A DNA stretch of 64,000 bases from Romanomermis culicivorax (Eukaryota; Nematoda; Enoplea; Mermithida; Mermithidae), in the NCBI GenBank assembly GCA_963922205.1, contig CAWUHX010000094.1:124001-188000 (forward strand). Reading direction: 5' to 3'. The translations under genes were made by a program, and so were the position numbers. Each line of letters opens with the position of its first letter. Position 1 is the first letter of the stretch. Shown here in pieces: positions 9,843 through 38,800 of the stretch. Under the pieces are notes generated by a model. It saw nothing but the letters and a program-made list of their open reading frames with translations. It did no database searches and was not told the origin of the DNA.

Positions 9843-9846
9843 CACA
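9843..9846. repeat. Target-site duplication of element B, left copy (CACA)
   Basis: CACA directly precedes the left TGTT terminus of B. The same four bases follow its right AACA terminus at 24010-24013. Four- to five-base duplications are usual for Ty3/gypsy elements. Confidence 0.7.
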
Positions 9847-10438
9847 TGTTATATTTTATTTTGGCCGGAGCGGAGTTGATACCGCGAGAGCAGGATTGGG
9901 ATTCCGAGGTTGCGTCCTTAATGTACGTGCATCCCACGCCCACGTTTACCCGATAACCTAATTCCTGGTACTTAAACCCCGACAACAATTAACCCAACAA
10001 TTAAAGAAAAGCCTAGTTTCTTTAATTGTCTCCCTTTTGTTCAGTACCAAGAGATGAAGGAGCTTTCCTACTTATTTATTATAATACGATAAAAGTACGA
10101 AAACTTACGTGACAAAAACGCGACGGGCGAGGCGAGGAGGAAGTAATAACAATAAATCGACCCCCATGCATGGGCGAGAAAAAGACGAGAAGGCGTGGTG
10201 GGAGGCTGCTAATATGAACTAGTGGTGGCCGGCGGGGCACACAACTAGTAAGAAAATAAACGCACACAAAGAATACGCTAATCGATAAGTGAATAGAGAG
10301 AGACCAGCGCACGCGTACCGACGTGCGCTACAGTAAGATGGCCACTGGTGGTCCGCGTTGCTCTCTCCACTTGCCACCTGCTGGCCTATGACGCGTTTTG
10401 ACAAAACAATAAAAATCGGCGGAAAACACACTACAACA
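9847..10438 (-). repeat. Element B 3' LTR (left)
   Basis: 592 bp, TGTT...AACA, matching 23418-24009 with about 18 substitutions and no indel seen. It contains a perfect stem-loop at 9998-10028. On the minus strand it should carry polyadenylation and promoter functions, but no TATA box was identified. Confidence 0.92.
9998..10028 (-). promoter_or_regulatory. Conserved LTR stem-loop
   Basis: The arms CAATTAAAGAAA and TTTCTTTAATTG are perfect inverted repeats around a 7-base loop. The same hairpin with a different loop is in the right LTR of B and in both LTRs of C (31109-31139, 47018-47048). Conservation of pairing with a changed loop suggests an RNA structure in the R/U5 region, perhaps for polyadenylation or packaging. 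Confidence 0.6.
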
Positions 10439-10509
10439 CCCCTCCCCCCTTGCAGTAGATTGCCCTAAGCGATCGTTAAGAAATACCGAAATAAGTGCAA
10501 GGGGAAGGG
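10439..10509 (-). promoter_or_regulatory. Element B polypurine tract and complementary upstream tract
   Basis: On the minus strand the sequence next to the 3' LTR is TGCAAGGGGGGAGGGG (10454-10439), a textbook polypurine tract for plus-strand priming. The stretch 10509-10496 reads CCCTTCCCCTTGCA and is nearly perfectly complementary to it. The RNA can therefore fold into a hairpin that pairs the PPT. The arrangement is shared with element C at 46545-46614. Confidence 0.75.
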
Positions 10510-10847
10510 CTCCACCACTACAGGCCGTCGCCGGGGTTGCTGAAGAATTCTTCGGCGTCACACAGCGGGGCCAGCGGAGTTGTTGGGGTAGTTTGAGCCG
10601 ATTTTTGGGGCGGCGACGAGAGTGCGTCCAGCGGCGAAGTGTACGGACAAAACGGGGCAAGTGGGGGCGTGTAGCGGGTCACCGGCGGTCAACTTACTGT
10701 GTGTTTGCAGCGTCGGCTGCACATGCGCTGGAAACTAGTACAAAAGTATAAAGCAAAACGAGATTAGAAATAAAACAACCGGATCAAAATGAGGTTAAGA
10801 AACACAAAAACGAAGAAAAACAATGTTACTGTACAAAAAGCTCTTGT
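10510..10847 (-). other. Element B 3' untranslated region
   Basis: This lies between the ORF3 stop and the PPT hairpin, with no coding frame. It includes the near-palindrome CCGAAGAATTCTTC near 10540-10556, which is a perfect 18-base palindrome in element C. Confidence 0.6.
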
Positions 10848-12039
10848 TCAATGGCGGCGGCGGCGGTAACAAGTATCAGATGCGGAGCGGTGATTTCGTG
10901 GGGGATCGCGGCGGTCGCGTTCATTTCGTCGGTAACCATCGTTGTGGTAGCCATGGGGATCGTACGGGTCGTCGTGGTCATCAAAACGGATGTTACGGGA
11001 ATAGCGGGATCGACCGTAATCAGAGGTATCCCGGCGGCGCGACGATGAGGTTGACGTTTGAAGTTGAAGCGGCGAGAGCGGGTTCACGCCTGGTGGTGGT
11101 AACTGAGTGGCAATTAGCGACGGTCGGTCGGACGGCATCCCTGTTGGCGGCAACGGTCGCGGTGGCAAAAGATTCCACCGGGCAGAAAAGTTGTGCCGAT
11201 GCAGCAGGGGCGGGGGGCGATCCGTCTCGCTGTGATATTGCAAATAACATTTTCGGATGTCGGCGATTTCGGGCGGCTGTGGAAACGGTGCGTAGCTCGG
11301 GTAAGCCATCCAGCTGTCGATGAGTCCGACAGCGGTGTTGTAGGCTTGAAGTAGGCACGAAGGGTTATCCAGGCCGCGGGCTTTGTATAGGAAAAGGGTC
11401 AAGTGGGCGGTGTGAACGGCGTCAACGACGCCGAGCTTCTCGGCCCAAAGACCGGCAACCCATTCCAATATCAACGTGGCAACGGCGTGCGAGATCCGGG
11501 GTTGTTGTTCTACGTATGCGGGGTGATAATGGTCGCGGAAATATTGGTACAGCGCCAGCGAAGCGTTTGTGGCGCGGATGTGCACGGGCATGATGACATG
11601 AATGCGAAGGCGCCCAAAAAAATTGATCAGCACCATTTCGTGCAACGTACGCGGTGAGAAAAACTCGATGGCTGGGTCAATATGTGGCGGGTAGCCCGGT
11701 GTGACTATCGTAACGCAGTGCGGCTTATCGGTGGTTCGGAATCGCGTGTAATTTGGCAAATGTGTGGCCTCGCTAGGCAACCGGGGTTTTATGGCTGGTG
11801 CGGAACTTGGTGGCAACGGAGCTCCAAGGACCGGTCTAGTGGCGATGATCACCGGCGGCTGTTTGAACGCAGTAACCGGAGCCGACGTCGGGGCCGTAGG
11901 CGGCAGCGAGGTGGTGTGGGTTGCTGTGGTCCTTATGGCGGTTGTCGGAGCCGTAGACGGCTGCGACGTTACCGTAGGCGTAATCGAGAGTGTTGCGGGT
12001 TCCACGTCCATAGGAGGCCGTGGAAGCGGGGCTTTGAAT
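10848..12039 (-). pseudogene. Element B ORF3, C-terminal region (novel domain plus Arg/Asp/Tyr-rich tail)
   Basis: The open frame is 387 residues after a 1-base insertion in an A-run near 12058 has knocked it out of frame with the exonuclease part. It has a Thr/Pro-rich leader, then a compact, probably folded domain of about 150 residues (from [14 protein letters not shown] through [19 protein letters not shown] to [17 protein letters not shown]), a Pro-rich linker, and a tail rich in Arg, Asp and Tyr ([16 protein letters not shown] and onward). The tail looks like an RNA-binding low-complexity segment. I do not recognise the folded domain. Element C carries the same protein in frame with the upstream part, so this is the natural C-terminus of ORF3. 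Confidence 0.65.
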
Positions 12040-12651
12040 TCATCTTTCGGCGGGTTTTTTTAGGGCTTCCAGGGGGCGTTGGATTTCAGCGTCCCTATGC
12101 AACGGGCTAATGAAGTCCGTCAATTTGGGCGGCGACCGGTCGAACTGATGGCGGTGTGCTTCTCCGTAAAAACCGGTCGTATGGACTTTGCGTGTTTGCT
12201 CGCTTTGTGTACGATGCGGTGGTGCGTCATCACGGCATTCGTGTTGGCGGCTATCCCTGCCGGTTGGTGGAGTTTGTTTCGTTTCTTTACGGTGGCGATC
12301 ATCACGAGAGTGAGACTTGTGGCGTGAACGATGGCTATCGGGTTTGTGAGCAGGCGGCGGTTTTGTTGCCGACGCTGCTGTTTTCGATGAATCGCGCTTG
12401 GGTTTCGGCATTGACGTGGCGTGCCAAGAGCGTTCGGCTTCTTCGCGGGCTCTCTGTTTATCGCGTTGTTCGCGGCGTCGAGTTGTGCATTTGCTGGGCG
12501 TGCGGCCGCGCTCAGCACGTGAAGTGCTGGGTGGCGGCGTACGCCGCGTACTCGGTTCGTCCGTTGTTCTTGTTTTGTGGGATTTGCAGTACGCCGATTC
12601 TTCCTGGAGCTGTTGTTTTCGTTTTATTGAGTGTTCATACCCGCCGGGTCT
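12040..12651 (-). pseudogene. Element B ORF3, Arg/Lys/Ser-rich basic region
   Basis: This open stretch lies between the TGA at 12652 and the frameshift near 12058. It is rich in Arg, Lys, His, Ser and Thr (for example [18 protein letters not shown]), resembling an RS-type or nuclear-localisation/RNA-binding segment. It continues ORF3 directly, as shown by the equivalent region of element C. Confidence 0.6.
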
Positions 12652-13230
12652 TCAGATAGGATTACCATAGCGATCTAGAGCCGGCACGGACGTGCTGGAA
12701 GCCTGTGGGGTTTGAACATCCACAGGCGCCGTCGGCGGCGCTAGAATCGCTGGTTGCGGCGGTTGCGGAGTCGGTTGCGGTTGCGATGTGACCGGCGGCG
12801 GTTGTGGAGCCGATGGTCGCACGACGGGTTGGGCCACCGCAGGAGCCATTTGGGCGAACGTCGGTGAAGGCAACAAAATTTGTTGTATCTGTTCTTTCAA
12901 CGCCTCGGGGTAGTCTTTCCAATGATGTTCGGGAAACAACATACCAGGCGGCGGTGGCGGAAAATGATATGCGGCGAGTGCTGCGGCCAAGGCGTCCCAT
13001 TGCTTAGCTGAAATAATTTGTTGAGAAAAACGTATGGGAGCACTATACCTGGCTGCGGCAACAGTAGCAATGAGCGGAGGTCCCGGCAAGGCTGCCGGCG
13101 TCGCCAAATATATTCGTGGATCCACGGCGGGTGCCGTGGTCATTGTCGTAGCGGCCGGTTCTGTAGAGACAACGTCCATAGACGTGGATTGATCCACCGT
13201 GCTTTCTTCGGGTATGTCGGTCAACATTTG
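12652..13230 (-). pseudogene. Element B ORF3, Pro/Gln-rich middle region
   Basis: The open frame is about 190 residues between a TAG at 13231 and a TGA at 12652. Element C has Glu and Arg codons at these two positions, so both stops are point mutations in B. The protein is dominated by Pro, Ala, Gln and Val, with one more structured part ([22 protein letters not shown] and onward to [19 protein letters not shown]). It is a linker between the exonuclease and the basic region. Confidence 0.6.
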
Positions 13231-15821
13231 CTAGGACGTTAACCTCTCGGAATCAATCGCGGCGGGTTGGACGGGTGTAGACTCGTCCATCGGAGCCAGG
13301 GCGATGTTGGAAATTTCATCGAGCGTCAATTTCAAGAAATCGTTGATTTGCGTGGCGGTTGCGGTTATATCGGAGGGCGCGGCTGCCATAGGGAGGGCCG
13401 ACACGTCTGTTGGCGGCGGCAGCTTGGCTATGTTGAGGTCGAAGATTTGCGTTTCGAGTAGTTCGTCGTCGGCGGGTTCGACTTCGACGTCGATAGGGCG
13501 GTTGAGAAGTTCCTCGGCGGTGAGCGTTTGCACCGAAGCCGTAGTCGGCATGGGGTACGCATACACTGGCGCGGGGAACGAAAAACGGTTTTGGAAATCG
13601 ATGAGCGCAATGAACGTTGAATAGAAATGGAAACAGCTGTGTGGATTGGCCGTATAGTCGTTTTCATCGATATCAATTTCTTCGACCGACGTTTCCATAT
13701 GGAAGTCTTCATTGAACACAATCGGGCGTAACGCAAAGCGATTGCAAATATACGTGCCTGGGTCGCTAGAGAAACTGGGTTCGCGTTCCGGGATACGGTT
13801 CATCCAATTCGTGAGAAGCGAATTGGGGTTGCCGTCGCTGCGGTACCACATGCACTCGTAAAACGCGGCGCGGATGTCTGGCATCATAGATTGAGCGTGG
13901 CAGAGAAGGATGTCATTGACGAAGGCGTATTCTGCGGCAGAACACGGTGAAGCGAGGAGCGCGGCTAACGGCATGAAAGACGTTAGCTTGCGGAACCACT
14001 CTCTGTCAACCTGTAAAAAGTCAAGGATGGTGGAAGGGTGATAACGATAATGAGTACCGTTATAAGTGCGCTCGCGTAGGGGTTGGTCAGCGGCTACGCG
14101 TTCTGTCCAAAGATCGTCAACTTCGTGAGGGAGTGGCGGTAAGTTGGGGTCGTTGTATGGCATACGATCGCGGACGGCCAACTTATATATCGGCGAGAGC
14201 CGAAAGTTGAGCAAGTCGAGAATCCGATCGGTGAGGTTGCTCTTCATGGCCGACGTGACGGCTGCTTGAAGGCGTTTGGGATCATCAAACACCGATCGTG
14301 GTTTGAGAGCCGGATCTTCGTCATCGGAAACGTCTGGTGACTTGTTCCATTCATCCTTTTGTTTCTTTTTCTTTTTCTTCGGCACTTTTGGAACGGGGAG
14401 AAGCTTCGGGTGAGTTGTTGGCGTCAAGGGTTTGACGTCCCGGAAGCCGTTGGGAACTGTACCTAAACAGAAAGACCGACCGTGGTCAGACCATGTGCAA
14501 TCATACATAAAAAATTTATAAGCCGAAAGAACTTGGTCTTGCATTATCGTGGGTAAGGCCACTTGCGACGTCCTCGGGTATATTCGGTTGGCGTAGTCGG
14601 GGGGCAGGACATCCGACAGCGGGACGTTGTGAAAAGTTGCGATGACGTATTCGGTTTGATGGTCGATTTCATCGGCATCCAACGAGTCGTGGGGAAACAA
14701 GGCGGGAGCGTTGTAGACCTCGGGGATGAAGCCGTAACGACCAAAGGCCAAAAACAATAGCAGCGGATAATAGGCGTCGAGGGCCGCGTAGGCCAGAACG
14801 TCGGATTGCAAGAACGACGTTGTTGGGTTGTTGAAAAAGCGTAGGGCTCCGGGGAAGCGTAGAGTGAGCTTTGAAACCTCCAGCGCCCACATGGCGGAAA
14901 CTGTTGCTTTGAGCGTGCGTTTTTCCAGAAAGAAACCAATCCGTCGTGCCACCTCGTACAGTGACGGGGATATGTCGATGTTTCGAATGACGCGGTACGC
15001 GTCGAAGTGGATTGCTTTTACGACGGGGTCTTGGTTCTTCTTTTGTCGGTCGGTTCGAAATTGAGTGCCCAGAAGCGCATATATTCCCGCCCAGTCGTCA
15101 GCTCCATCGAAAGAGACTACGATGGTGTGGTCGCCGTCGACTAGGGCGAAAAGCGCGGTCCAGTCTTCTGGGGTGGCGGTGAACGTTTCAAAGACAAATA
15201 TCGTGCCATTCCGGAACGCGAGTTGAACATAGCCGGGGTAGCTAGACGCCGTGGGGTCGGCTGGCATTTGCACGGTGAATTGAAACTGTTTGAAGTCAGC
15301 GGCCATGATCGATTCGGTGTCAAAGCCGACCAGCGTGTAGCCACGGAAGTTTGGTGTGGGTTGGGCGGCCAAGGCCTGCCCCAAACTTCCGGGTGAAAGG
15401 AATATCGGTGGCGGCAAGACATTCGGGGGTTGCGCGTACATGGAAATGTACCACGACTCCAAATCGGCGACGCGGGTCAGGCGTTTGACGTTGTTTTCTA
15501 AACAAGAGCGAATGCGATACTCATCATTGACATATGGGGCACCAAATCGAAAGAGCGAAATGGGGATTAAAGGAGGATTTAAACGTGAACCAGGAGGGAG
15601 GTGCGGTGTTGCTTTCGATTGGTTAGGAGGACACATGCTCTGAGGAGGCGTTGGCTTGGGCGGTGATGTCACCTTGATGGGCGCATTTTGACAACTGGAT
15701 CGGGCTATGATAGCGAGATAACGAGAGTTGTCGTATGTGGAAATCAAAGCAGCGGCCGGTTGTGGACTGAGGAGGCCACAACTTGACGATGGCGGGGATC
15801 GCGGCGGCTGACCATGGGACT
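13231..15821 (-). CDS. Element B ORF3 exon 2: DEDDy 3'-5' exonuclease domain protein
   Basis: This large frame encodes a DnaQ-superfamily exonuclease of the RNase D/WRN (DEDDy) type. Motif I is GFDTES (Asp at 15319-15321). Motif II is [10 protein letters not shown], the WRN-like form (Asp near 15096-15094). Motif III is [14 protein letters not shown] (YxxxD, Asp at 14776-14778). The domain spans roughly 15325-14750 and would cleave nucleic acid from 3' ends. About 170 residues, partly Pro-rich, precede it. About 500 mostly uncharacterised residues follow, including a Lys/Glu-rich patch near 14370 and acidic patches. It lies directly 3' of integrase, where retroviruses carry env. The frame ends at a TAG that is GAG in element C. 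The splice acceptor is at 15822/15821. Confidence 0.8.
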
Positions 15822-15901
15822 CTGGCCCAAAACTACAGAGTGGGGGAGGTGCCCATGGAGTCCCAAGCAAAAGCATGCAAGTATAAAAAATGAGAAAATA
15901 C
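15822..15901 (-). other. Predicted 80-bp intron of element B ORF3
   Basis: The donor is G|GTATTTTC and the acceptor TTTGGGCCAG|AG on the minus strand. Splicing joins codons G+AG in frame (Asp-Glu-Ser-His). The same donor, acceptor context and phase occur in element C (38801-38898). An in-frame ATG inside the intron of B is not conserved in C, which favours splicing over direct initiation. Confidence 0.6.
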
Positions 15902-16040
15902 CGTCGCAGGCGAAACTTAGATTGTTTTGGTGGGGCTGCTGCTCGGCCCAACGGACGTATCGTTCGTTGACGTTTATCGATTCACGATACGGCGGAGGCT
16001 CGTCGGCCATGGAGGTTGATCCAGTCGACGGCGTCATCAT
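15902..16040 (-). CDS. Element B ORF3 exon 1 with PPPY motif
   Basis: A 139-base exon from the ATG at 16040 encodes 46 residues including [20 protein letters not shown]. The PPPY is a PPxY-type late-domain/WW-binding motif, usually found in retroviral Gag. The exon has the same length and phase in element C (38662-38800) with the motif retained. The ATG lies 512 bases downstream of the integrase stop, so ORF3 is probably made from its own or a spliced transcript. Confidence 0.6.
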
Positions 16041-16551
16041 TTTGAAAAAATAAAATTTTTGGGAGCGGCTGGAAAATGCGACTATTGCTGATGGAAGCGA
16101 AAGATGGAAATGAAATAGTAAAAAGAATAAGCCGCTGAAAGGTGAAGAAAGTGTAAAGTAAGAAAATGCAAACACTATCGTCACGAAAAGCAACACAAAC
16201 ACCACTATGTTAATGGAGAGTAAAATCAACCTTTCCCAATTAGTCTTATGAGAGTGATAGCGGCCAGGGTCGGGCGGAAGTAAACCGAATGGCCTCGCGC
16301 CAAACAGAACCTAACATTAAAGAAGAAACCCCCTCTTATTGCAAAAGTGTGGGAACCGGGGCAGGATGTAAAGTGATATTGTAAAGTCAGCCAAAGGCTA
16401 GTAAAGGACGGGTTGAATGGAAATATGTCGAAACTGCCGTGCATCCTTGCTCGTTAACGTTGTCGCCATGATCTAAATTAAACAAACATAAAGATTATTT
16501 ACAACGCGGCGGGATGAGCGCCGTATCACAAAAGAAAATTTTCAAAGCGAA
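16041..16551 (-). other. Element B inter-ORF region between integrase and ORF3
   Basis: This is non-coding by comparison with element C, since indels shift all frames. It could contain the ORF3 promoter or splice acceptors, but nothing specific was identified. Confidence 0.4.
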
Positions 16552-19321
16552 CTATTGCCAGCGAGAAGTGTGGGGCGTGCAGGGTCCACCTTCTTCTTTT
16601 TCAAACGCGTCTTTTGTCGGTCGTGGGACAAACGGTTTTAGACGTGTTATGGAGACGGTCTGCAGGCGGCCAGGCGCGTCGAGTGAGTCGATGGTAACAA
16701 CGTTTTCGGCTGCGCGAGAGGCGTCCGTGATGAGGAAAGGCCCGATGAAGTCGGGTTGAATTTTGTTGGCTTTGCGCGTGTTGGTTAAAAGAACTAAGTC
16801 ATTGACGACGAAATCACGTTTTCGAGCTTTGCGGTCAAAATATTCTTTGCTGGCGGTGGCTGCGGCATCGAGGTTAGCTTTAATCTTTTCGTGCATCTTG
16901 AGTTGGGCTTGCGTTAGGATATGTTGATAAGCGTCGTAATTCAACGGCAAGGTGAGGCGGCGGGCGCAGTCGTAGTCGAAGGTGATGCGCGGTTCATATC
17001 CTCGTAATAGACTGAATGGCGAATGGCGTGTGGCTGTATGCAGCGTGGCGTTGTAAGCGAACACAGCGTAGGGCAGGTAGCGCTCCCAGTTTTCTGGGTC
17101 CTCGGCAGTATACTTTTTGAGCTGGGCGATCAATGTTTGATTGAAACGTTCGACCATTCTGTTGCACTTGGGGTGGTACGCCGTTGTTTTAACTTTTCTA
17201 ATCTTGAGAAGTTCGCAAATATCTTGCATGAGTTTTGACGTAAAGCATCCACCTTGATCGGAAAGGAGTACGAGTGGGCTGCCATGCGTGAGAACGACGT
17301 TGTTGATAAAACATTCCACTATTGTTGAAGCTTTTTGATCTGGTATCGGATGCGCGGATACAAATTTTGTGAAGTAATCCTGAAAAACAATAACGTAGGG
17401 ACGTTTCTCACCTACTGGCGAAATGTTGTTGATGTCAGTTGCCACGATTTCGAATGGGTGTTTGGGTTGAATTGGCAACAATGGCGGAGGCGGTGACGTG
17501 GGTGGTGTTGTTAGTTGGCAAATTTTGCAGGTTTTGATCCAATCTCGAACGTTTTCTTCCATGCCGGGCCACCAAAAGTGAGCTTTAATGGCTGCTAGCG
17601 TACGATTTGTCCCTTGATGGTTCAAAATTTTTGCACCGTGGAATTGATGAAGAGTTTGGTCGACCATGGAAGCGGATACGACTAATTGCTTGACCTCTTT
17701 AAGTTGACGGTATGAAATTTGATCTTCGAGGAAGAAAATCGGTGGGTGTTTGACAGCGTTGTCTGTTTTGAGGGAGGCGATAATTGTTGTTATGGCTGGA
17801 TCCGCGGTTTGAGCTTTTAAAACTTCTTCGTGGGCGGCGATCGTAATGACTTCGACCGGAGGGGGTTCCTGGTCGGCATCTTTAGGCATTGAATTAGAGA
17901 GTGTGGGTGAACTGATGGTCTTTCTCGTCATTGCACGAGTGATGGCGTTGATTTCGGCGTCGACTTCCGTGGGCAGTGAAGCCACTGCTGGGCGTATTTC
18001 GGGTACCATTAAGTTGGTTTCCTTAGTTGCACCAGCAGGGTGAAAATTCTCACGGAAAATCGTTGCGGTCAAGTTTTCAGCGTTCTGGATCGGGCATTTG
18101 TCGCGGTCATCTTTCCTGGACAGAAAATCGGCGCAAGCGTTATCTTTACCTTTAACGTATTCGACTTTGTAATCGTAGTCTTGGAGGCTGATCGCGAAGG
18201 GTTGAAGGCGCGAGTTTCGGTGTTTTTCATCTTTGAGCCATTCGAGTGGCTTGTGGTCGGTGCCAACGATAACTTTCTGGCCGTACACAAAGTGGCGGTA
18301 CATCCGGAAGCCGTAGACAATGGCGAGGCATTCACGCTCAGTTGTACTGTAGCGGGTTTCGGCATCGGTGAGTACGCGACTATTGTAGGCGATGACCCAT
18401 TGATCGTTTTTGTTTTCTTGATACAAAATTGCTCCGATGGCGGTCGTACTAGCGTCGGTTTGAATAATGAATTGAGCTTTGCCATCAAAAACCGGGTAGC
18501 GGAGAAAGGGCGAAGACGTAAGGGCGTTCTTTATACCTTTGAATGCGGCGTAGTGTTCATCCGTGGCGAAATATTGGGCGTCTTTGCGTAGGAGTCCGTA
18601 CAAAGGACTGGACAATGTTGCCAAATTCGGGATGAATCGTTTGCACCATTGGACTAAACCTAAAAAACTTTGCATACCTTTTTTGGTCTTCGGGAATTCG
18701 TATTCGGCGATCGCTTTGACTTTCTCCGGATCGGCAGCGATTCCGTGGGCGCTAAGTAGGTGTCCCAAAAATTTGACTTGCGGCGGCAAGAATTCGCATT
18801 TGTCGGGCCGAAGCGTAAGATTGGCCGCGCGGAGGGCGTCGAAAACGATTTGGAGATGTTCCAAATGTTCTTCAAACGAGTTCGAGAAAATGATGATATC
18901 GTCGATGTAAACCAGGCAGATTTTCCAGATATACGGGCGGAGGATTCGTTCCATTAAGCGTTGAAATTCGGCGGGCGCGTTCTTCAAGCCGAAGGGCAAA
19001 ACTTTGAATCGAAACAAACCTTCTTGGCAGATGAAGGTTGTTTTATCGCGGGACTCGGCGTCGAGGGGTACCTGCCAGTACCCGGCTTTGAGGTCGAGTG
19101 TGGTGAAGAATTTTGCGTGGCCCATTGCGTCTAAATAGTCGTTGATGCGCGGGATCGGGAATTTGTCGCTCGGCGTAACGTCATTTATTCCGCGGTAATC
19201 GACAACGGGTCTCCAAGAGCCGTCTTTTTTCTTTACCAAAAATAGCGGTGCAGCCCAAGGTGAGCGGGATGGTTCGATAAAATCATTGTCAAGCATTTCT
19301 TGAATATGGCAACGGACAATC
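16552..19321 (-). CDS. Element B reverse transcriptase, RNase H and integrase
   Basis: An open pol frame of more than 900 residues. RT has [22 protein letters not shown] (catalytic Asp near 19093), [14 protein letters not shown] and YIDD (near 18900). RNase H has [13 protein letters not shown] (near 18456), [15 protein letters not shown] and TDHKPLEWL. The integrase zinc finger is near 17650-17520 (HQ-GT, HFWWPGM, CKICQ), and the catalytic residues are in VATDI, LLSDQGG and MVERFNQT. The C-terminus has a GPF module ([17 protein letters not shown]). All catalytic residues are present. The frame is preceded by a TGA at 19324 where element C has AGA, so it was originally continuous with gag-pro. 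Confidence 0.92.
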
Positions 19322-19323
19322 GG

Positions 19324-20965
19324 TCATTGTTCCATCGCGGCGCGGTAGTAATGGCGGGATACGGGCCTTGCGGTGCCGGTGTCGATGCTGACGGTCAACT
19401 CGCTAGTAATAGTTGGTTTGTCGCCGGGGAGGCTGAAGACATCGCGGTGTTGTCGAAGCATCTTGAGGGCTTTTGCTTTTTGCGCGGTAGAAACGTAGGT
19501 GTTTTCGGTCATTTTGTTCAGGGCGTATTCCAGCTTTTGTTGTGCGGTGTGGCCAAGGAATGATTTGTCCAGTGCGGCCGGCTCGTGGTCAGTTAAGTCA
19601 CGGTCGGCGGCAGCGGTTGCTATCTGACAATCGGCGTGGGCTTCGGAATACTCCAGCGCGTGCTTTGCCATCGCGATGAGCTGATTTGGTCCGAGTTTGA
19701 TACTGTTTGGCGTATTGTTGATGAAGAGGAGCGGACAATGACCGTTGGTGATGTTGACCACTGCCGTTTCGACTGGAAGTTCTGCGGCAACGTTATATGT
19801 GGCGAGTGGTTGTACGATCACGTCGGGCACTGTCGCCGATGTTGTGGGAAAAACGCTACTTTTGACCCATTGTTGGCAGTGTGGTGAAATCGAAACAGAC
19901 GCTTGGGCGACGAGAAAAATCGGTTCGGCCAGCTCGGTAACCTCCAGCCGCCGAGGGGGTGGTTGGTGTGGACTAGGTTGAGCCTGCGGTATCGGTTGTT
20001 CAACTTCGATTTCTTCGGGTTGGCTAAAAATATCGGATTTATCATCATAAGAACTTACTCGTTCGTCCTCTGGTGTTTCTTCTAGGACGTTGTCGTTAGC
20101 AGCGTTGAGAAACAGTCCTGTTTGCGGGCGGACCGAGGCGATTACCTTGAGCGGCAGTTTAATGTCTTGAATTTCGATGTAATTGTCTTTGAAATTTAAA
20201 ATGGCGTGGATATGGGGATGCGCGAGGAAATCGGTTCCAATGATGAATTGATCGTTTCCGTCGTCATCAAGGATTACACATTTGATCATGTGCTCTCCGA
20301 ACGTGGATTCCATCGTAACAACTACCAGGCCGTGAGCGTTGACTACGGCGCCATCTGCTACTTTGATTTTTCCACAAATCGGGAGTTGGAGCGATTGCTT
20401 GTCGAAAGCGCTATTGACTAATCCTGATGACAGGACGGAACATTGGGCACCTGTGTCGATTAGCGCGTGTGCTTTGACGGCTCCCATTTTGATTGGGATT
20501 TGAAAGGCTCTCGTAGAAGCGTACTTGCGGACAAACGATTTGGAAGATGGCATGAGGTTATCAATTTGACAAACGGACGAGCGGATGTGACAGGGGTCTT
20601 GAAAAGCGCGGCCCGTTGCGTTCCAACGGACAATGCTGGGGCAAACAATCGGCGCGGCAGAAGCGATTTCTTTGGATGGAACAACCATATTGGCCGTTGA
20701 CGTTGATTGATTGTTAACGCGTGTTTCGAGCGCGGGTATTGACGCCGTATTTGGTGCCGGAAGGGCGGGTAGGGTAATTTGCAATTCTGAAGATTGGGAG
20801 CTAGCGCGCGATGAATCCGTCGGCGTTGTGACGTATGGGGTCGGTACCGCGTTGTAATGGATATGTTGTTCCCACGGCGCCGGAAATTGATGGTTCGGGT
20901 AAACGGCATAGGTATTCTGAACAAAATCATTTGGGCGTTGTATAGGGTTACCTTCATAAAAATGG
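19324..20965 (-). pseudogene. Element B retropepsin region of the gag-pol frame
   Basis: The open frame lies between TGA codons at 20968 and 19324. The active site ALIDTGAQCSVLSS is near 20457, and the second-lobe motif FIIGTDFLAH follows about 80 residues later, giving a complete retropepsin. The remainder, a Pro/Glu-rich spacer and a connector ending in AMEQ, leads into RT. The bounding stops correspond to Arg codons in C (CGA and AGA), so this copy would need read-through to make pol. Confidence 0.85.
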
Positions 20966-20967
20966 TT

Positions 20968-23280
20968 TCACGCGCTGCGGGCGTAGTTCGCGCCTCGTTG
21001 GGGCGCTCCTCCGCGGCGGGGTCGCCAATCGCGTTGTCCACGGACATCGTTTGAATTGTTTCGAAAATCGACTTGCCGTGGTTGGGCGGCATAATTTGGG
21101 CGGTTTGGTTTAAGTCGGGTTGACTGTTGAGCGTTTTGCCGCTTGAGCCAGACGCAGTCTTCGGTATTGTGGGTGCGGGATTTGTGGGTGTCGCACCTGA
21201 GGCCTGAAGGTTGCGTCGTGTGTGCGCGGTCTCTGCTGGCGGATCGGTCAAAACGATTTGGGTACGGCTCTCTGTTCTGAGATAGATGGCGCGGGCTTTG
21301 TTGCCGATTGTTAGGTATCGTTTCTTCAGGGCGTTGTCGAGATTTTCGTTCTTCATAGTCGCGGTCGTATCGTTGAATCAATTGTTCCAAAAGTATCTCC
21401 ATGCGCGGCGGTTGCGGCGGCGGTGGCTCAATCGCTTGTGGTTGAAAAGAGACGAATTTAGTGGGTTGCGGCGCCGAATTTTGCGTCCTACGGTCCATTG
21501 AGGGAGAGCGCTCGCGGTAGCGATTTTGAGGGCGGTCCATGCTGCGGCCGCGTTCCAAACTGCAGTCAAACGGTTGCGGCGACTTCGGTGGTGGTGCATC
21601 TTGATCGGCTTGGTTTACAAGGATGGGTCTTTCTGCGGTTCCCATTTCGGCTTTGGTTGCATTGAGGACACTATGGGCTTTGGCTACGGCATCCGCCAAT
21701 TGTTGAACATTTGTGAAACCCTTTGCTTGCTCGCCAATTGTGAGTTGATAGAAAACAGGCATTTTGGTCAAAAAGGTGTCAATTACTTGTTTGTGCCGGA
21801 AAGTTTGATCTTCATGCTGATACAATAGTTGTACATAAGTCATTACCTTACTCAGAAACGCGGCGGGCTCTTCTCCAGCTTCTGGTGTGATTGACGCAAG
21901 TTCGCGTTTAAGAGTCATCGGGTTGCAATTGGGCGCCAACTGGAACATGAGTAAGTGTTTGGCGTCTTCGTACCGCGTCATATCTTGGATCATATCGCTT
22001 GGTGTATCGCGGGTGAGTCGGCGTAGGGCGCTCATCTTTACGTGATTGGAGGCGTCGTAACCGAACTCATTTTCCAGTCGTATGAAGAAGCGTAGCAGGC
22101 GTTTATTTGTTGCGGTGCCGTCAATAATCAGCGGGTGCATATTGTCGACGATTGTTTTGATGCGGCTATCTTCCTCACGATGAGACATGCGCCGCATGTC
22201 GTACCGAGGATGCGGATGTTCATAATAATCCTCGGGTGGGTAATCTGAGAAACCTAACTGGTTTGCGGCGGGCGGTGGGCGTCTTTGAAGCGCGGAACGG
22301 TGTAAATCCTCGTCGGCTCGCGTAGTGCGGGCGAATGCGTTATTATATAAGGTATCTGTCAACGGTGCTTTGGGTTTGACTTGGTTTGGTAGCCTGCCAA
22401 AGACTGGAGCCGGTTCAGTTTCACGGAGAGTTTCGTTTGGGATATAAATATCTCTTGTTTCCTCGCCGTGGAACCGTGAGGACACCGGCGGCAGTCTTGG
22501 TGTAGGCGGATTACGCGCGTGCGTCGCGGCGGCGGTTGTGGAAATCAATTGTTGCATTTGCTCAGTGAGTGCGGCGAAACGCGCGTTAGTGGCTTTTGTT
22601 TGTTCTTGTATTTCGAGGTGGACGCGTAATTGCTGGGCTTGGAATTGATCGGAGACGGCACCGATAATTTGATCGATGGTTTGTACCGTAGGGACATTGT
22701 TGGTTATACGCGCGGCGGCGGTGTTGAGTTGTACCAGCGGGTCGCGTGCTTCGATTCGAAAATTTTGGACTTCGTTGGCGTTTGCGATGGCTAAACTGCT
22801 GCGGTGATCGTTTACTGAAGCACGGGTGGCGGCTGGGGCTTGCGGTGGTTCAATATTGACAAAGGATTCGGAAGAGTCGGTTCTGGCGATGATTTGGTCG
22901 TTGTTACTTTGAGTTGGCGCGTTAGGCGGCGGCATTTGCGGTGCGGGCGGCGCGTTAAGGCGATTTTCGGCCGCGGTAAGGAGGGTTTGATTTAGCGACC
23001 GCGGGGGTTGAGAACTAGTCGTCGCTGCGGTTGCGGGAATGAGCGGTGTTTGCGGTTGTGCTGTCCCGTCCAGCGCGGGAGTGCTGAAATTAGACAAGGG
23101 CGGATTATGGGGTGGGAGGCTTACCATGGGTACCACTGTCGATTGGGTAATATTTGACGGTCGCGGCAACAGCATCTGATCAAAATTTAAGGTGCGGCGT
23201 GCGGCTGTGGCGTTGTTCGGGGAACTGGAGCGCGACGGAAATGGAGTGAAGTCCGGCGGTGTGTGGCTTACCGTTGGCAT
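20968..23280 (-). CDS. Element B gag
   Basis: From the ATG at 23280 the frame gives about 770 residues. The same frame is open further upstream into the 5' LTR but without an ATG. The N-terminal 300 residues are Pro/Ala/Thr/Asn-rich. A capsid-like helical region follows (from [15 protein letters not shown] through [12 protein letters not shown] to [13 protein letters not shown]). Near the C-terminus is a knuckle [14 protein letters not shown] (Cys-x2-His-x4-His-x4-Cys), the variant common in Ty3/gypsy gag, flanked by Arg-rich segments. It forms the particle and binds RNA. The stop at 20968 is TGA, where element C has CGA and reads through into protease. Confidence 0.88.
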
Positions 23281-23397
23281 CTTTCTTCTCAAGGTATAAT
23301 AACCTCTTTTATACCCTTTGGGGCAGCTACGGCGGGGTCGAATTTTGAACTCTTTGGATTTTTTCGGATGCAACGCAACAGCGGGGAGCGGCAACGT

Positions 23398-23417
23398 ACA
23401 ATCCAAACGGTCACCAC
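23398..23417 (-). promoter_or_regulatory. Element B primer-binding site
   Basis: Immediately inside the 5' LTR the sense strand reads G then TGGTGACCGTTTGGATTG. TGG one base after the LTR is the expected start of a tRNA 3'-end complement. Element C has TGGTGACCGCTTGGATTG at the same place. The tRNA species could not be assigned by eye. Confidence 0.65.
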
Positions 23418-24009
23418 TGTTATATTTTATTTTGGCCGGAGCGGAGACGATACCGCGAGAGCAATATTGGGATTCCGAGGTTGCGTCCTTAATGTACGTG
23501 CGTCCCACGCCCACGTTTACCCGATAACCTAATTCCTGGTACTTAAACCCCGACAACAATTAACCCAACAATTAAAGAAAAGCCTAGTTTCTTTAATTGT
23601 CTCCCTTTTGTTCAGTACCAAGAGACGAAGGAGCTTTCCTACTTATTTATTATAATACGATAAAAGTACGAAAACTTACGTGACAAAAACGCGAGGGGTG
23701 AGGCAAGGAGAAAGTAATAACAATAAATCGACCCCCACGCACGGGCGAGAAAAAGAGGAGAAGGCGTGGTGGGAGGCTGCTAATATGAACTAGTGGTGGC
23801 CGGCGGGGCACACAACTAGTAAGAAAATAAATGCACACAAATAATACGCTAATCGATAAGTGAATAGAGAGAGACCAGCGCATGCGTACCGACGTGCGCT
23901 ACAGTAAGATGGCCACTGGTGGTCCGCGTTGCTCTCTCCACTTGCCACCTGCGGGCCTATGAGGCGTTTTGACAAAACAATAAAAATCGGCGGAAAACAC
24001 ACTACAACA
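23418..24009 (-). repeat. Element B 5' LTR (right)
   Basis: 592 bp, TGTT...AACA, paired with 9847-10438. The gag frame is open through its last 140 bases, but no ATG is present there. CACA follows at 24010-24013. Confidence 0.92.
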
Positions 24010-30705: not shown

Positions 30706-31289
30706 TGTTGTAGTGTGTTTTCGGCCAATTTTTTATCATTTTGTCAAAGCACGTTAGAGGCCCGCAGGTGGCAAGTGGAGAGAGCAACGCGGATCACCGG
30801 TAGCCATCTTACTGTAGCACACGTCGGTACGCGTGCGCTGGTCCCTCTCAGTTACTATTATTAACGTTATAATTTTATATGTTTTCGTTACTAGTTGTGC
30901 GCCCCGTCGGCCACCACTAGTACATACTCGCCACCTCCTACCACGCCTTTTTCGTCTCTCTTTTTCTCGCCCGTGCGTGGGAGTTGATTTAGTGTTTTTA
31001 TTTTTCGTCTCACCCGTCTCCGTTTTTGTTCACGTAAGTTTCGTACATTATTGCGTAACATTAAAAGGTAGAAAATTCATCGCCTTTCAATCTTGCGTAC
31101 AAGGGAGACAATTAAAGAAAGCAGTTCTTTCTTTAATTGTTGGGATAATTGGTGTCGGGTTTAAGTACCAGTAATTAGTTTATTGGGTAAACGTGGGTGT
31201 GGGAAGCACGTACATTAAGGACATAACCTCGGAATCCCAATCTTGCTCACGCCGCATCATCTCCGCCCCGACCAAACCAAAATACAACA
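30706..31289 (+). repeat. Element C 5' LTR
   Basis: 584 bp, TGTTGTAGTG...TACAACA. It contains the conserved hairpin at 31109-31139 (13-bp perfect arms, loop CAGTT). Its first 300 bases match the B LTR family (shared GGCCCGCAGGTGGCAAGTGG and CATCTTACTGTAGC). Confidence 0.92.
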
Positions 31290-31290
31290 C

Positions 31291-31308
31291 TGGTGACCGC
31301 TTGGATTG
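31291..31308 (+). promoter_or_regulatory. Element C primer-binding site
   Basis: TGGTGACCGCTTGGATTG lies one base after the LTR. It is identical to the B site except for one base. Confidence 0.65.
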
Positions 31309-31426
31309 TATGTTGCTGCTCCCCGCCATTGCATTGCATCCGAAAAAACCCAAAGAGTCCAAAATTCGACCCCGCCGTAGCTGCGCCAAAGGGTACAGAA
31401 GAGGTTATTATACCCTGCGAAAAAAG

Positions 31427-34400
31427 ATGCCAACGGTAAGCCACACACTGCCGGACTTCACCCGCTTTCTGTCGCGATCCAGTTCTCCGAACGCCGCCAC
31501 AGCCGCACGCCGCGCCCTAAGTTTTGACCAAATGCTGTTGCCGCGACCGTCAAATATTATGCAATCGACAGCGGTACCCACGGTGAGCCTCCCGCCCCAT
31601 AATCCGCCCTTGTCTAATCTCAGTACTCCGCCATTGGACGGGACGGCACAACCGCAAGTACCGCTCATTCCCACAACCGCGGCGACAATCAATTCTCAAC
31701 CCCCGCAGTCGCTAAATCAAAACCTCCTTACCGCCACCGAAAATTGCCTTAACGCGCCGCCCGCATCGCAAATGCCGCCGCCAAGCGCTCCGACCCGAAG
31801 TAACAATGACCAAGTTGTCGCCAGAACCGATTCCTCCGAATCCTTTGTCAATATCGAACCACCGCAAGCCCCAGCCGCCACCCTTGCTCCAGTAAACAAT
31901 CACCGCAGCAGCCTAGCCATTGCAAACGCCAATGAAGTTCAAAATTTTCGAATTGAAGCACGCTACGCGCTGGATCAACTCAACACCGCCGCCGCGCGCA
32001 TAACCAACAATGTTCCTACGGTACAAACGATCCATCAAATTATCGGCGCCGTCTCCGACCAATTCCAAGCCCAGCAATTATGCGTTCAATGCGAAATCCA
32101 GGAACAAACCAAAGCCACTAACGCACGTTTCGCTGCACTTGCCGAGCAAATGCAACCATTGATTTCCACAACTGCCACCGCAACTAATGCCCGTAATCCG
32201 CCTACACCAAGACCACTGCTGGTGCCCACACGGTTTCACGGCGAGGAAACAAGAGATATTTATATCCCAAACGAAACTCTCCGTGAAACTGAACCGGCTC
32301 CAGTCTTTGGCAGGCTACCGAATCAAGTTAAACCCAAGGCACCGTCGACGGACACCCCATATAATAACGAATTCGCCCGCACTACGCGTGCCGACGAAGA
32401 TTTACACCGTTCCGCGCTTCAAAGACGCCCACCGCCCGCGGCAAACCAGTTTGGTTTCTCAGATTACCCACCTGAGGATTATTATGAACATCCGCATCCT
32501 CAGTACGACATGCCGCGCACGTCTCATCGTGAGGAAGATAGCCGCATCAAGACAATCATGGACAACATGCACCCGTTGATTATCGACGGCGCCGCAACAA
32601 ATAAACGCCTGTTACGCTTCTTCATCTGCCTGGAAAACGAGTTCGGCTACGACGCCTCCAACCACGTAAAGATGAGTGCCCTACGCCAACTCACCCGCGA
32701 TATGCCAAGCGATATGATCCAAGATATGACGCGGTACGAAGACGCCAAACACTTACTCATGTTCCAATTGGCTCCTGATTGCAACCCAATGACTCTCAAA
32801 CGCGAACTCGCGTCAATCACCCCAGAAGTTGGAGAAGAACCCGCCGCATTTCTGAGTAAGGTAATGACTTATGTAGAATTATTGTATCAGCATGAAGATC
32901 AAACTTTCCGGCACAAACAAGTAATTGACACCTTTTTGACCAAAATGCCTGTTTTCTATCAACTAACAATTGGCGAACAAGCAAAAGGCTTCACAAATGT
33001 CCAACAATTGGCCGACGCGGTAGCTAAAGCTCGTAGTGTCCTCAATGCAACCAAAGCCGAAATCGGAACCGCGGAACGACCCATTCTTGTAAATCAAGCC
33101 CATCAGGACGCACCACCACCGAAGTCTCCGCAACCATTTGATCGCCGTTTCGAATGCCGCTGCAGTATGGATCGCCCCCAACACCTCTACCGCGAGCGCT
33201 CTCCATCTACGGACCACAGGCCTCAAAATTCGACACCACAACCCACTAAATTCGTCTCCTTTCAACCACAAGCGATTGAGCCACCGCCGCCGCAGCCGCC
33301 GCGCACGGAGATGCTATTGGAACAATTAATTCAACCATACGACCGCGACTATGAAGAACGAAAATCCCGACAACGCCCTGAAGAAATGATACCCAACAAC
33401 AGGCAACAAAGTCCGCACCATCAATCTCAAAGCAGAGAGCCGTACGCCAATCGCTTCGACCGATCTGCCAGCAGAGACCGCGCACGCACGATGCAACCTA
33501 CAGGTCTTTGGTGCGATGCCCACAAATCCCGCACCCACAACACCGAAGATTGCGTCTGGCTCAAGCGGCAAAACGCTCAACAGTCAACCCGACTTAAACC
33601 AAACCGCCCAAATTATGCCGCCCAACCACGGCAAGTCGATTTTCGAAACAATTCAAACGATGTCCGTGGACAACGCGATTGGGGACCCCGCCGCGGAGGA
33701 CCGCCCCAACGAGGCACAAACTACGCCCGCGGCGCGCGAAACCATTTTTATGAAAGCAACTCTATACAGCGCCCACATGATTTTGTTCAGAATACCTACG
33801 CCGTTTACCCGAACCATCAATTTCCGGCACCATGGGAACAACATATCCATTACAATGCTGTACCGACCACATACGTCACGACGCCGACAGATTCATCGCG
33901 CGCTAGTTCGCAATCTTCAGAGTTACAAATAACCCTACCCGCACTTCCGGCACCAAATACCGCGTCAATACCCGCACTCAAAACATGCGTTAACAATCAA
34001 TCGATGTCAACGGCCAATATGGTTATCCCATCCAAAGAAATCGCTTCTGCTGCGCCCATCGTTAGCCCCGGCATAGTCTTTTGGAACGCAACGGGCCCCG
34101 CGTTTCAAGACCCCTGCAACATCCGCTCGTCCGTTTGTCAAATTGATAACCTTACGCCGTCTTCCAAATCCTTTGTCCGCAAGTACGCTTCTACGAGAGC
34201 CTTTCAAATTCCAATCAAAATTGGAGCCGTTAAAGCACACGCGCTCATCAACACAGGTGCCCAATACTCCGTCTTGTCATCAGGTTTAGTCAAACGCGCT
34301 TTTGACAAGCAATCGCTCCAACTCCCAATTTGTGGAAAAATCAAAGTAGCCGATGGCGCCGTAGTCAATGCTCAAGGCCCGGTAGTCGTTACGATGGAAT

Positions 34401-34450
34401 CCGCATTCGGAGAGCACATGATCAAATGCGTAATCCTCGACGACGACTGA
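31427..34450 (+). pseudogene. Element C gag fused in frame to retropepsin
   Basis: From the ATG at 31427, which is shared with B, the frame runs through gag into protease without a stop; an earlier in-frame ATG at 31310 is not shared. Gag has the Pro-rich N-terminus, the capsid region and the knuckle [14 protein letters not shown]. Protease follows in the same frame, showing that the ancestral element made gag-pro-pol as one polyprotein. The active site reads ALINTGAQ, so the catalytic Asp is Asn, and a TGA at 34448 (Gly in B) truncates the domain. This copy would yield particles at most, not active protease. Confidence 0.88.
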
Positions 34451-36218
34451 AATGACCAATGCATCATCGGAACCGAATTCCTCGTGCACCCAGATATCCA
34501 CGCCATTTTGAATTTTAAAGACAATGACATAGAAATTCAAGACGTTAAACTGCCGCTCAAAGTAATCACCTCGGTCCGCCCGCGAACGGAATTGTTTCTA
34601 AACGCCGCCAACGACAATGTCTTAGAGGAAATACCAGAGGACGAACGAGTAAGTTTCTCTGATGATAAATCCGATATTTTTAGCCAACCCGAAGAAATCG
34701 AAGTTGAAAACCGATACGGCAGGCTCAACCTAGTCCACACCAACCGGCCCCATGGCGGTTGGAGGTTACCGAGCTCGCTGAACTGATCTTTCTTGTCGCC
34801 CAAGCTTCTGTCTCGATTTCGCCACACTGCCAGCAATGGGTCAAAAGTAGCGTTTTTCCCACAACATCGGGGACCATGCCCGATGTGATTGTACAACCCC
34901 TCACCACCGATAACGTAGCTGCAGAACTCCCAGTTGAAACCGCAGTGGTCAACATCACCAACGGTCATTGTCGGCTCCTCTTCATTAACAATACGCCAAA
35001 CAGTATCAAACTCCGACCAAATCAGCTCATCGCGATGGCAAAGCACACGCTAGAGTATTCTGAAACCCACGCGGACTGCCAGATAGCAACCACCGCCGCT
35101 GACCGCGATTTAACTGACCACGAGCCGACCGCACTAGATAAATCGTTCCCTGGCCACACCGCACAACAAAAGCTGGACTATGCCCTAAACAAAATGACCG
35201 AAAAAACTTACGTTTCTGCCGCGCAAAAAGTAAAAGCCCTCAAGATGCTTCGACAACACCACAATGTTTTCAGCCTCCCCGGCCATAAACCAACTATCAC
35301 CAGCGAACTGACCGTCAGCATCAACACCGGCACCACAAGGCCCGTATCCCGCCATTACTACCGCGCCGTGATGGAACAAAGACCGATTGTCCGTCGCCAT
35401 ATTCAAGAAATGCTTGACAATGATTTTATCGAACCATCCCGCTCACCTTGGGCTGCACCGCTATTTTTGGTAAAGAAAAAAGACGGCTCTTGGAGACCCG
35501 TTGTCGATTACCGCGGAATAAATGACGTTACGCCGAGCGACAAATTCCCGATCCCGCGCATCAACGACTATTTAGACGCAATGGGCCACGCAAAATTCTT
35601 CACCACGCTCGACCTCAAAGCCGGGTACTGGCAGGTACCCCTCGACGCCGAGTCCCGCAATAAAACAACCTTCATCTGCCAAGAAGGTTTGTTTCGATTC
35701 AAAGTTTTGCCCTTCGGCTTGAAGAACGCGCCCGCTGAATTTCAACGCTTAATGGAACGAATCCTCCGCCCGTATATCTGGAAAATCTGCCTGGTTTACA
35801 TCGACGATATCATCATTTTCTCGAACTCGTTTGAAGAACATTTGGAACATCTCCAAATCGTTTTCGACGCCCTCCGCGCAGCTAATCTCATGCTTCGGCC
35901 AGACAAATGGGAATTCCTGCCGCCGCAAGTCAAGTTTTTGGGACATCTTCTTAGCGCGCGCGGAATTGCTGCCGATCCGGAGAAAGTCAAAGTGATCGCC
36001 AAATATGAATTTCCAAAGACCAAAAAAGGTATGCAAAGTTTTTTAGGTCTAGTCCAATGGTGCAAGCGATTTATCCCGAATTTGGCAACATTGTCCAGTC
36101 CTTTGTACAGACTCCTACGTAAAGACGCCCAATATATCCCCACCGATGAACATTACACCGCATTTGACGGTATCAAGAAAGCCCTTACGTCATCGCCCTT
36201 CCTTCGCTACCCGGTCTA
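34451..36218 (+). pseudogene. Element C protease C-terminus and reverse transcriptase
   Basis: This continues after the TGA with CIIGTEFLVH (Asp to Glu in the second-lobe motif). A frameshift near 34710 follows, then an open frame 34759-36218 with the connector and the RT core: [42 protein letters not shown] catalytic residues are intact. The frame ends at TAA at 36216-36218, where B has Phe. Confidence 0.85.
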
Positions 36219-38211: not shown

Positions 38212-38661
38212 TCTTTACGTTTGTTTAATTTAGATCATGGCGACCTCATTGACGAGCAAGGATGCACGGCAGTTTTGAAACACCTCCCTTCGACCTGTCT
38301 TTTACAAGCACTCTGCTGACTTTACAACATCACCTTACATCCTGCCCCGGTCCCCACGTATTATGATAAGAGGGGGTCTCTTCTTTAATCTTAGGTTCTG
38401 TTCAGCGCGAGGCCATTCAGTTTATTTCCGCCCGACCCTGGCCGCTATCACTCTCATAAGACTAATTGGGAAAGGTTGATTTTACTCCCCAATAACATAG
38501 TGGTGTTTGTGTTGCTTTTCATAACGGTAGTGTTTGCATTTTCTTACTTTACACTTTCTTCACCTTCAGCGGCTTATTCTTTTACTATTTCATTTCCACT
38601 TTTTGCTTCCATCCGCAATAGTTGCATTTTCCAGCCGCTCCTAAAAATTTATTTTTTCAAA
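38212..38661 (+). other. Element C inter-ORF region
   Basis: Counterpart of 16041-16551 in B. It diverges by indels that break any common frame, so it is non-coding leader for ORF3. Confidence 0.4.
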
Positions 38662-38800
38662 ATGACGATGCCGTCGACTGGATCAACCTCCACGGCCGAC
38701 GAGCCTCCGCCGTATCCTGAATCGATAAATGTCAACGAACGATACGTACGTTGGGCCGAGCAGCAGCCCCACCAAAACGATCTAAGCTTCGCCTGCGATG
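38662..38800 (+). CDS. Element C ORF3 exon 1 with PPPY motif
   Basis: ATG at 38662, 139 bases, same phase as B. It contains [20 protein letters not shown]. It is followed by the donor G|GTATTTTT at 38801. Confidence 0.6.

What the first reader, a model, noticed from the sequence alone, without database searches (positions are those of the whole stretch)
13231..15821. A retrotransposon that carries a DEDDy 3'-5' exonuclease where env should be
Elements B and C both place a long ORF directly 3' of integrase, with an RNase D/WRN-type exonuclease domain: motif I GFDTES, motif II FDGADDW, motif III YAALD. Ty3/gypsy elements normally end with integrase or env there. A 3'-5' exonuclease made by a retroelement could trim cDNA ends, proofread, remove untemplated or tRNA-derived bases, or degrade host small-RNA effectors (WRN/MUT-7-type enzymes act in RNA silencing). 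I am not aware of a described family with this layout, but could not search.
Basis: partly seen in the sequence, partly recalled or inferred. Interest (0 to 1): 0.9.

Follow-up and report, generated by a model that had tools for sequence, protein, structure and literature searches.

The report
Nematode retrotransposon carrying an exonuclease gene
A group of jumping genes in a mosquito-parasitic nematode carries, where an envelope gene often sits, a gene for a protein of the 3'-5' exonuclease type whose active-site residues and sequence are kept by natural selection; elements of this general kind were already known from rotifers, so this is a new variant.

Summary
Element B (9847-24009, minus strand) is a Ty3/gypsy retrotransposon with a large ORF3 between integrase and 3' LTR; element C repeats the layout. 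Single-sequence Pfam and PDB searches miss the domain, but intermediates from the same genome link it: window ORF3 to L040 ORF3 (BLASTP 3e-22), to L043 (7e-13), to PF01612 (31.8 bits, cut-off 23.6). In a six-sequence alignment of four families, five of six invariant columns are the DEDDy set. A partly confident model best matches Nibbler, WRN and RNase D. Between B and C the domain has the lowest dN/dS of the regions tested (0.09; RT-RH-IN 0.12). The genome, Romanomermis culicivorax by size and scaffold count, holds at least 50 copies of this family and further gypsy families with DEDDy ORFs on two distant pol lineages. Not unprecedented: bdelloid rotifer elements Juno and Vesta carry DEDDy ORF3s (Rodriguez 2017). 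New by my searches: nematode host, other gypsy lineages, no dUTPase found, intact DEDD, a conserved, apparently spliced PPPY leader. Role inferred only: an RNA exonuclease acting in trans, perhaps against small-RNA silencing.

The parts
9847..24009 (-). Element B, LTR retrotransposon of the Ty3/gypsy type that carries the exonuclease ORF3
   Evidence: LTR pair 96.8% identical; flanks CACA/CACA
23418..24009 (-). 5' LTR of element B
9847..10438 (-). 3' LTR of element B
9843..9846 (.). target-site duplication CACA (left copy; right copy 24010-24013)
23399..23416 (-). probable primer binding site: starts TGG, complementary to a tRNA-type 3' end ...CCA, one base from the 5' LTR (tRNA not identified)
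   Evidence: read from sequence
10439..10455 (-). polypurine tract next to the 3' LTR
   Evidence: read from sequence
20971..23559 (-). gag ORF by position, 863 aa
   Evidence: dN/dS 0.21 between B and C; no Pfam match at E<=1
19327..20967 (-). protease ORF, 547 aa; no dUTPase match
   Evidence: PF13650, PF13975; dN/dS 0.15
16555..19323 (-). reverse transcriptase, RNase H, integrase ORF, 923 aa
   Evidence: PF00078, PF17917, PF17921, PF00665; dN/dS 0.12
15902..16039 (-). candidate leader exon with PPPY motif, frame 2
   Evidence: 9 copies: pN/pS 0.19, no stops, followed by a GT kept in 9 of 9
15705..15901 (-). candidate intron (GT..AG kept in 9 of 9 copies; stops and frame-breaking gaps in all three frames); phase fit worked out by hand
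13234..15704 (-). ORF3, first and longest open piece in copy B (open frame reaches back to 15981)
14660..15340 (-). DEDDy 3'-5' exonuclease domain (approximate limits)
   Evidence: dN/dS 0.09
15310..15327 (-). motif I GFDTES (D-x-E)
15091..15111 (-). motif II FDGADDW; catalytic D is the one before W
14776..14790 (-). motif III YAALD (Y-x3-D)
12655..13230 (-). ORF3 continuation after an in-frame stop in this copy
   Evidence: open in copy C; dN/dS 0.40 from only 11 changes
12043..12651 (-). ORF3 continuation, same frame
   Evidence: dN/dS 0.21 for 12651-12060
10851..12059 (-). ORF3 C-terminal part, shifted frame in this copy; arginine-rich tail
   Evidence: dN/dS 0.16 for 12059-11400; 11399-10851 inconclusive (0.51, 18 changes); tail composition
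30706..47199 (+). Element C, second copy of the family
   Evidence: LTRs 96.6% identical; flanks GATA/CATA
38721..39569 (+). element C, start of the ORF3 frame with motif I (its end lies in the insertion)
41793..44471 (+). element C, ORF3 after the insertion with motifs II and III

Best explanation
ORF3 is a gene of the retrotransposon itself that encodes a DEDDy-type (RNase D/WRN/Nibbler-like) 3'-5' exonuclease domain followed by long linkers and a C-terminal region with an arginine-rich tail. SHOWN computationally: position between integrase and 3' LTR; full DEDDy residue set; DnaQ-like fold in a partly confident prediction; purifying selection as strong as on pol; ORF3s of this type after integrase in several gypsy families of the genome. 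INFERRED: it is made as a separate protein from a spliced RNA whose first exon encodes a PPPY-containing leader; it is catalytically active; it acts in trans on 3' ends of RNA, helped by the basic tail. For the biological role my ranking is: shortening or degrading host small RNAs or other RNAs used to silence the element (about 0.35), processing 3' ends of the element's own RNA or cDNA (about 0.30), proofreading or repair of cDNA (about 0.10), others (about 0.25). The confidence below is for the identity as an element-encoded, probably active DEDDy exonuclease, not for the role.
Against: No single-sequence match of the window ORF to PF01612 or PDB; the A4 profile (6 of 13 rows family A) reaches only E 0.0083 in PDB and also lists a cytochrome P450 at 0.44. 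First structure run failed (mean pLDDT 33); the second has mean pLDDT 54, 158 of 297 residues below 50, and its alignment includes family D, itself a PF01612 match, so the fold is not wholly independent evidence. Family D is not detectably related to A or F pairwise (21.2 and 17.7 bits, both below the shuffle maximum 23.9). With 20 rows (A5) the motif I E and motif III D are only 90% or more, not invariant: copy L004 has YAALE and L034 an altered motif I; annotated relative P0003 has lost motif II and III letters. The frame from 15704 to 15501 shows no constraint. No RNA or protein data; activity and role are untested.
Confidence: 0.87

Rival explanations
1. The DEDDy fold is kept only as an RNA-binding or scaffold module, as in EXD1 or Maelstrom, and has no nuclease activity.
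Against: Five of the six invariant columns of A3 are the metal-binding D/E residues and the motif III Y; an inactive module would not need all of them.
Confidence: 0.12
2. Fidelity or end repair in cis with reverse transcription: the exonuclease enters the particle and removes mismatched, untemplated or tRNA-derived 3' ends of cDNA.
For: WRN and A-family polymerases with this fold beside a polymerase are among the structural matches. Element B is large (14.2 kb); in nidoviruses an ExoN is credited with allowing genome growth (abstract of PMC7968707).
Against: ORF3 is not fused to RT and has its own, apparently spliced, leader, so packaging would have to be separate. The top PDB profile hit is a mut-7/Nibbler-type enzyme, though WRN is close behind.
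Confidence: 0.2
3. Envelope-like gene that happens to hold nuclease-like motifs.
For: Position of env; PPPY motif in the leader, a known type of retroviral late domain (recalled). Hydrophobic peaks of 1.72 (A, in the motif III helix) and 1.79 (E) over 19 residues do not exclude a membrane segment.
Against: No envelope or fusion family in Pfam for the ORF3 pieces, while the neighbouring element's glycoprotein is found by the same search. Nuclease fold.
Confidence: 0.03
4. A host exonuclease gene transduced by a few copies, evolving neutrally or decaying.
For: Most listed family A copies have stops within the match (43 of 50), many family F copies are degenerate.
Against: dN/dS 0.09; 28 of 33 listed family E copies have no stop across a ~1396-aa match. 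In the two protein searches all 5 and all 13 hits were R. culicivorax proteins; only 2523 and 7994 candidates were scored, and host exonuclease genes among the 119 matches were not singled out.
Confidence: 0.03
5. Chance resemblance of three short motifs in an unrelated protein.
For: No direct PF01612 or PDB match of the window ORF.
Against: Transitive homology to PF01612, motif spacing and invariance, fold match.
Confidence: 0.01

Closest known systems
Bdelloid rotifer LTR retrotransposons Juno and Vesta with DEDDy ORF3 (Rodriguez, Kenefick and Arkhipova 2017, PMC5408684)
   Same: Retrovirus-like LTR element; ORF3 after integrase encodes an RNase D-like DEDDy exonuclease; [quoted passage not shown] env lacking in most of these families (passages).
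   Different: Rotifer Juno and Vesta have a dUTPase between PR and RT, none found here; the paper reports DEDD changed to DEED, here DEDD is intact; no rotifer protein came up with profile A3; here a nematode host, many copies, PPPY leader. I did not see rotifer ORF3 lengths, so length is not compared.
Athena/Terminon Penelope-like retroelements of rotifers (PMC5408684, PMC6431247; passages)
   Same: Retroelements carrying DEDDy ORFs among accessory genes.
   Different: Penelope-like RT, endonuclease-deficient, up to 40 kb at telomeres; absence of LTRs and integrase is recalled.
Cellular DEDDy enzymes: Nibbler/mut-7, WRN exonuclease domain, EXD2, RNase D
   Same: Fold and all five active-site residues.
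   Different: Host genes; 10-18% identical to the model in the structural alignments listed; the element proteins are joined to long element-specific regions.
Viral ExoN of nidoviruses and arenaviruses (abstract of PMC7968707)
   Same: A parasite-encoded 3'-5' exonuclease, used for proofreading or for suppressing host defence.
   Different: RNA viruses; zinc fingers in the viral enzymes; no relation to the present domain was tested. That they are of the DEDDh/DEEDh type is recalled.

Membership tests
Ty3/gypsy LTR retrotransposon | Two LTRs with TG..CA ends and a short target duplication | tested here: met
   B: LTRs begin TGTT and end AACA, 96.8% identical, CACA duplication. C: LTRs 96.6%, flanks agree at 3 of 4 bases
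Ty3/gypsy LTR retrotransposon | pol order protease, RT, RNase H, integrase | tested here: met
DEDDy 3'-5' exonuclease (PF01612 superfamily) | Motif I D-x-E, motif II D, motif III Y-x3-D in order | tested here: met
   invariant in A3, 6 rows; motif I and II in 8 of 8 and motif III D in 7 of 8 family A loci, the window's included
DEDDy 3'-5' exonuclease (PF01612 superfamily) | RNase H-like (DnaQ) fold | tested here: met
DEDDy 3'-5' exonuclease (PF01612 superfamily) | Profile match over the curated cut-off (a detection criterion) | tested here: inconclusive
   window ORF itself not matched; homologous L043 ORF 31.8 bits and family D L041 ORF 41.7 bits against cut-off 23.6; L040 ORF 16.5 bits
DEDDy 3'-5' exonuclease (PF01612 superfamily) | Metal-dependent 3'-5' nuclease activity | not testable with these tools
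   needs protein
Bdelloid Juno/Vesta type with DEDDy ORF3 | DEDDy ORF3 downstream of integrase | tested here: met
   window B and C; integrase upstream in 55 of 60 loci
Bdelloid Juno/Vesta type with DEDDy ORF3 | dUTPase between protease and RT | tested here: not met
   no dUTPase match at E<=1 in the PR ORF or the RT ORF
Bdelloid Juno/Vesta type with DEDDy ORF3 | DEED variant of the catalytic set | tested here: not met
   DEDD; rotifer state from PMC5408684 (passage)
Bdelloid Juno/Vesta type with DEDDy ORF3 | Detectable sequence relationship of the ORF3s | tested here: inconclusive
   13 hits, all R. culicivorax; the search needs shared 5-residue words and scored 7994 candidates
Envelope-bearing gypsy (errantivirus type) | Fusion glycoprotein family match after integrase | tested here: not met
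   no envelope family in the ORF3 pieces of B at E<=1
Envelope-bearing gypsy (errantivirus type) | Transmembrane segment in ORF3 | tested here: inconclusive
   19-residue Kyte-Doolittle maxima 1.72 (A, in the motif III helix), 1.79 (E), 1.66 (D)

The most novel reading that the evidence does not exclude
Gypsy elements of this nematode have repeatedly taken up, or long inherited and diversified, a DEDDy exonuclease as a counter-silencing enzyme: it is translated from its own spliced RNA, reaches RNA through its basic tail, and trims or destroys the small RNAs that would silence the element. The A/E/F group and the D group would then be two independent captures on distant pol lineages, parallel to Juno and Vesta in rotifers.
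Probability: 0.28. Interest if true: 0.8.

Novelty: new variant of a known kind. Interest (0 to 1): 0.57.

Why it matters
A second animal phylum with DEDDy exonucleases in LTR retrotransposons, held under strong selection and in many copies, would turn a rotifer curiosity into a recurrent solution. It makes the question 'what does a retroelement gain from a 3'-5' exonuclease?' testable, because the families here are many and some copies have open ORF3s. If the target is small RNA, this would be a retrotransposon-encoded silencing antagonist in nematodes.

Full report
WHAT IS THERE. The window lies in an assembly of 359,112,060 bases in 595 contigs. This agrees with the published long-read assembly of Romanomermis culicivorax, a mermithid nematode that parasitises mosquito larvae (359.1 Mb, 595 scaffolds; Table 1 of PMC10879605, passages seen), and all 5 and all 13 hits of the two ORF3 protein searches carry that species name. 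The finding sits in element B, minus strand, 9847-24009: LTRs 96.8% identical, CACA on both flanks, a TGG-type primer site next to the 5' LTR and a purine tract next to the 3' LTR. It codes for gag (863 aa, by position), a protease ORF (547 aa) and an RT-RNaseH-integrase ORF (923 aa). About 5 kb of mostly open sequence follows, constrained as coding in most of the stretches tested. Element C (30706-47199, plus strand) has the same plan with a 2.3 kb insertion inside ORF3.

THE EXONUCLEASE. Pfam, at E<=1, gave nothing credible for the window ORF, and PDB gave no hit; one R. culicivorax relative (P0001) matched the end of PF01612 at E 0.13. A PF01612 search of the genome returned 119 matches at E<=10, most over the cut-off. 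Among the weaker ones (20.8 bits, below the cut-off of 23.6) was the place fetched as L040, a gypsy pol followed by a 1396-aa ORF3. Window ORF3 and L040 ORF3 align over 432 aa with E 3e-22; L040 and L043 with E 7e-13; L043 scores 31.8 bits against PF01612, and family D (L041) 41.7 bits. With 1000 shuffles each, A-E (89.4 bits), A-F (46.6) and E-F (58.2) exceed every shuffle, while A-D (21.2) and F-D (17.7) do not. In alignment A3 (one sequence each of A, E and F, three of D; 744 columns) six columns are invariant: motif I D and E, motif II D, one L, motif III Y and D. With more copies (A5, 20 rows) the motif I E and the motif III D drop to 90% or more. The alignment fixes the motif II aspartate as the one before W in FDGADDW.

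SELECTION. Between B and C the exonuclease domain (224 codons) has dS 0.536, dN 0.051, ratio 0.09, the lowest of 13 regions, against 0.12 for RT-RH-IN, 0.15 for protease and 0.21 for gag. Further along ORF3 the ratios are 0.15, 0.18, 0.40 (11 changes only), 0.21, 0.16 (12059-11400, in its own frame) and 0.51 (11399-10851, 18 changes, not informative). Wrong frames give ratios above 1 in the domain. Divergence is patchy: 12601-13800 and 10801-11400 are only 2-4% different, which suggests exchange between copies. In family E, 10 copies, 45 pairs, pN/pS is 0.15 in the domain and 0.08-0.32 in the six regions tested.

COPIES AND FAMILIES. Family A: 50 of 4276 first-look candidates were scored; all 50, the window's own included, cover at least residues 60-915 of the query's 916, 7 of 50 have no stop in the matched stretch, and open frames reach 1795 aa. 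In the 8 loci studied, 6 have stops; each has one at ORF residues 20-74 (five of these six in the candidate intron), and L006 has three more. Family E: 33 of 5018 candidates scored, 28 of 33 without a stop across the match. Family D: 30 loci fetched; motif II CDL in 30 of 30, motif III in 29 of 30, motif I in 26 of 30 (two of the four exceptions are matches that start after motif I). Family F: 136 matches listed from 2326 candidates, many of them degenerate, the last ones being more distant ORFs with open frames up to 1445 aa. An integrase lies upstream on the same strand in 55 of 60 loci: A 8/8, D 28/30, E 10/10, F 9/12. Pol identities are 48-57% among A, E and F but 23-34% between A and D, so DEDDy ORF3s sit on two distant pol lineages.

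LEADER AND TAIL. Across 9 copies (B, C, L003-L009), 16039-15903 is constrained in frame 2 (pN/pS 0.19, no stops) and encodes a PPPY motif; it is followed by a GT kept in 9 of 9. An AG at 15706-15705, also 9 of 9, would join it to the exonuclease frame (worked out by hand). Between them all three frames have stops and frame-breaking gaps. From 15704 frame 0 has no stops or gaps, but no constraint until about 15500, after which pN/pS is 0.21. A spliced leader is the simplest reading; initiation inside the ORF is not excluded. The C-terminal tails are arginine-rich in A (18 R in the last 90 residues) and RGG-like in E (11 R, 26 G), which points to nucleic-acid binding by inference. The C-terminal parts of A and E do not align detectably.

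MECHANISM. Shown: a conserved, element-encoded DEDDy-fold ORF. Inferred: active enzyme, separate spliced message, RNA as substrate, action in trans. Repeated association with retroelements in rotifers and here, separation from RT, basic tails, and the place of Nibbler/mut-7 and WRN at the top of the profile ranking favour an RNA target, with silencing RNAs or the element's own RNA ends as main candidates. Proofreading is possible but needs packaging with RT.

COMPARISON. Rodriguez et al. 2017 (PMC5408684; abstract, passages, section 3.1) already described DEDDy ORF3s in Juno and Vesta LTR elements and in Athena elements, discussed 3'-end processing and silencing roles, and noted acquisition at least twice. 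PMC6338049 (passage) calls the DnaQ-like domain a well-known accessory domain of LTR transposons. Differences here: nematode host, no dUTPase found, DEDD rather than DEED, PPPY leader, many copies. I found no nematode report in the searches. Hence: new variant of a known kind.

Noticed in passing
97-29847: An outer LTR pair (97-1153 and 28802-29847, 94.8%) bounds another gypsy-like element on the minus strand (by eye from translations: IN 3242-1842, RT 4894-3545, PR 5854-4895) in which element B is nested. Its ORF 9442-6422 matches a Monjiviricetes fusion glycoprotein (PF24664, 38.9 bits, cut-off 27) and lies upstream of protease and RT, to my knowledge an unusual place for an envelope gene.
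   Followed up: partly
39497-41797: A ~2.3 kb insertion splits ORF3 of element C between motifs I and II; no terminal inverted repeat seen and no ORF of 130 aa or more inside it apart from frames running in from ORF3.
   Followed up: partly
10801-13800 versus the matching part of element C (about 43000-46200): Patchy divergence between B and C (2-4% in some 300-base blocks, up to 19% in others) suggests template switching or gene conversion between copies.
   Followed up: no
L066 (C137:767700-768600) and other places: Further families of DEDDy ORFs (23-30% identical to family F) with open frames up to 1445 aa; a larger radiation that was not explored.
   Followed up: no
58785-59225 and 60149-60703: Exons of a host-like tyrosine kinase gene on the plus strand, by eye from the translation.
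   Followed up: no
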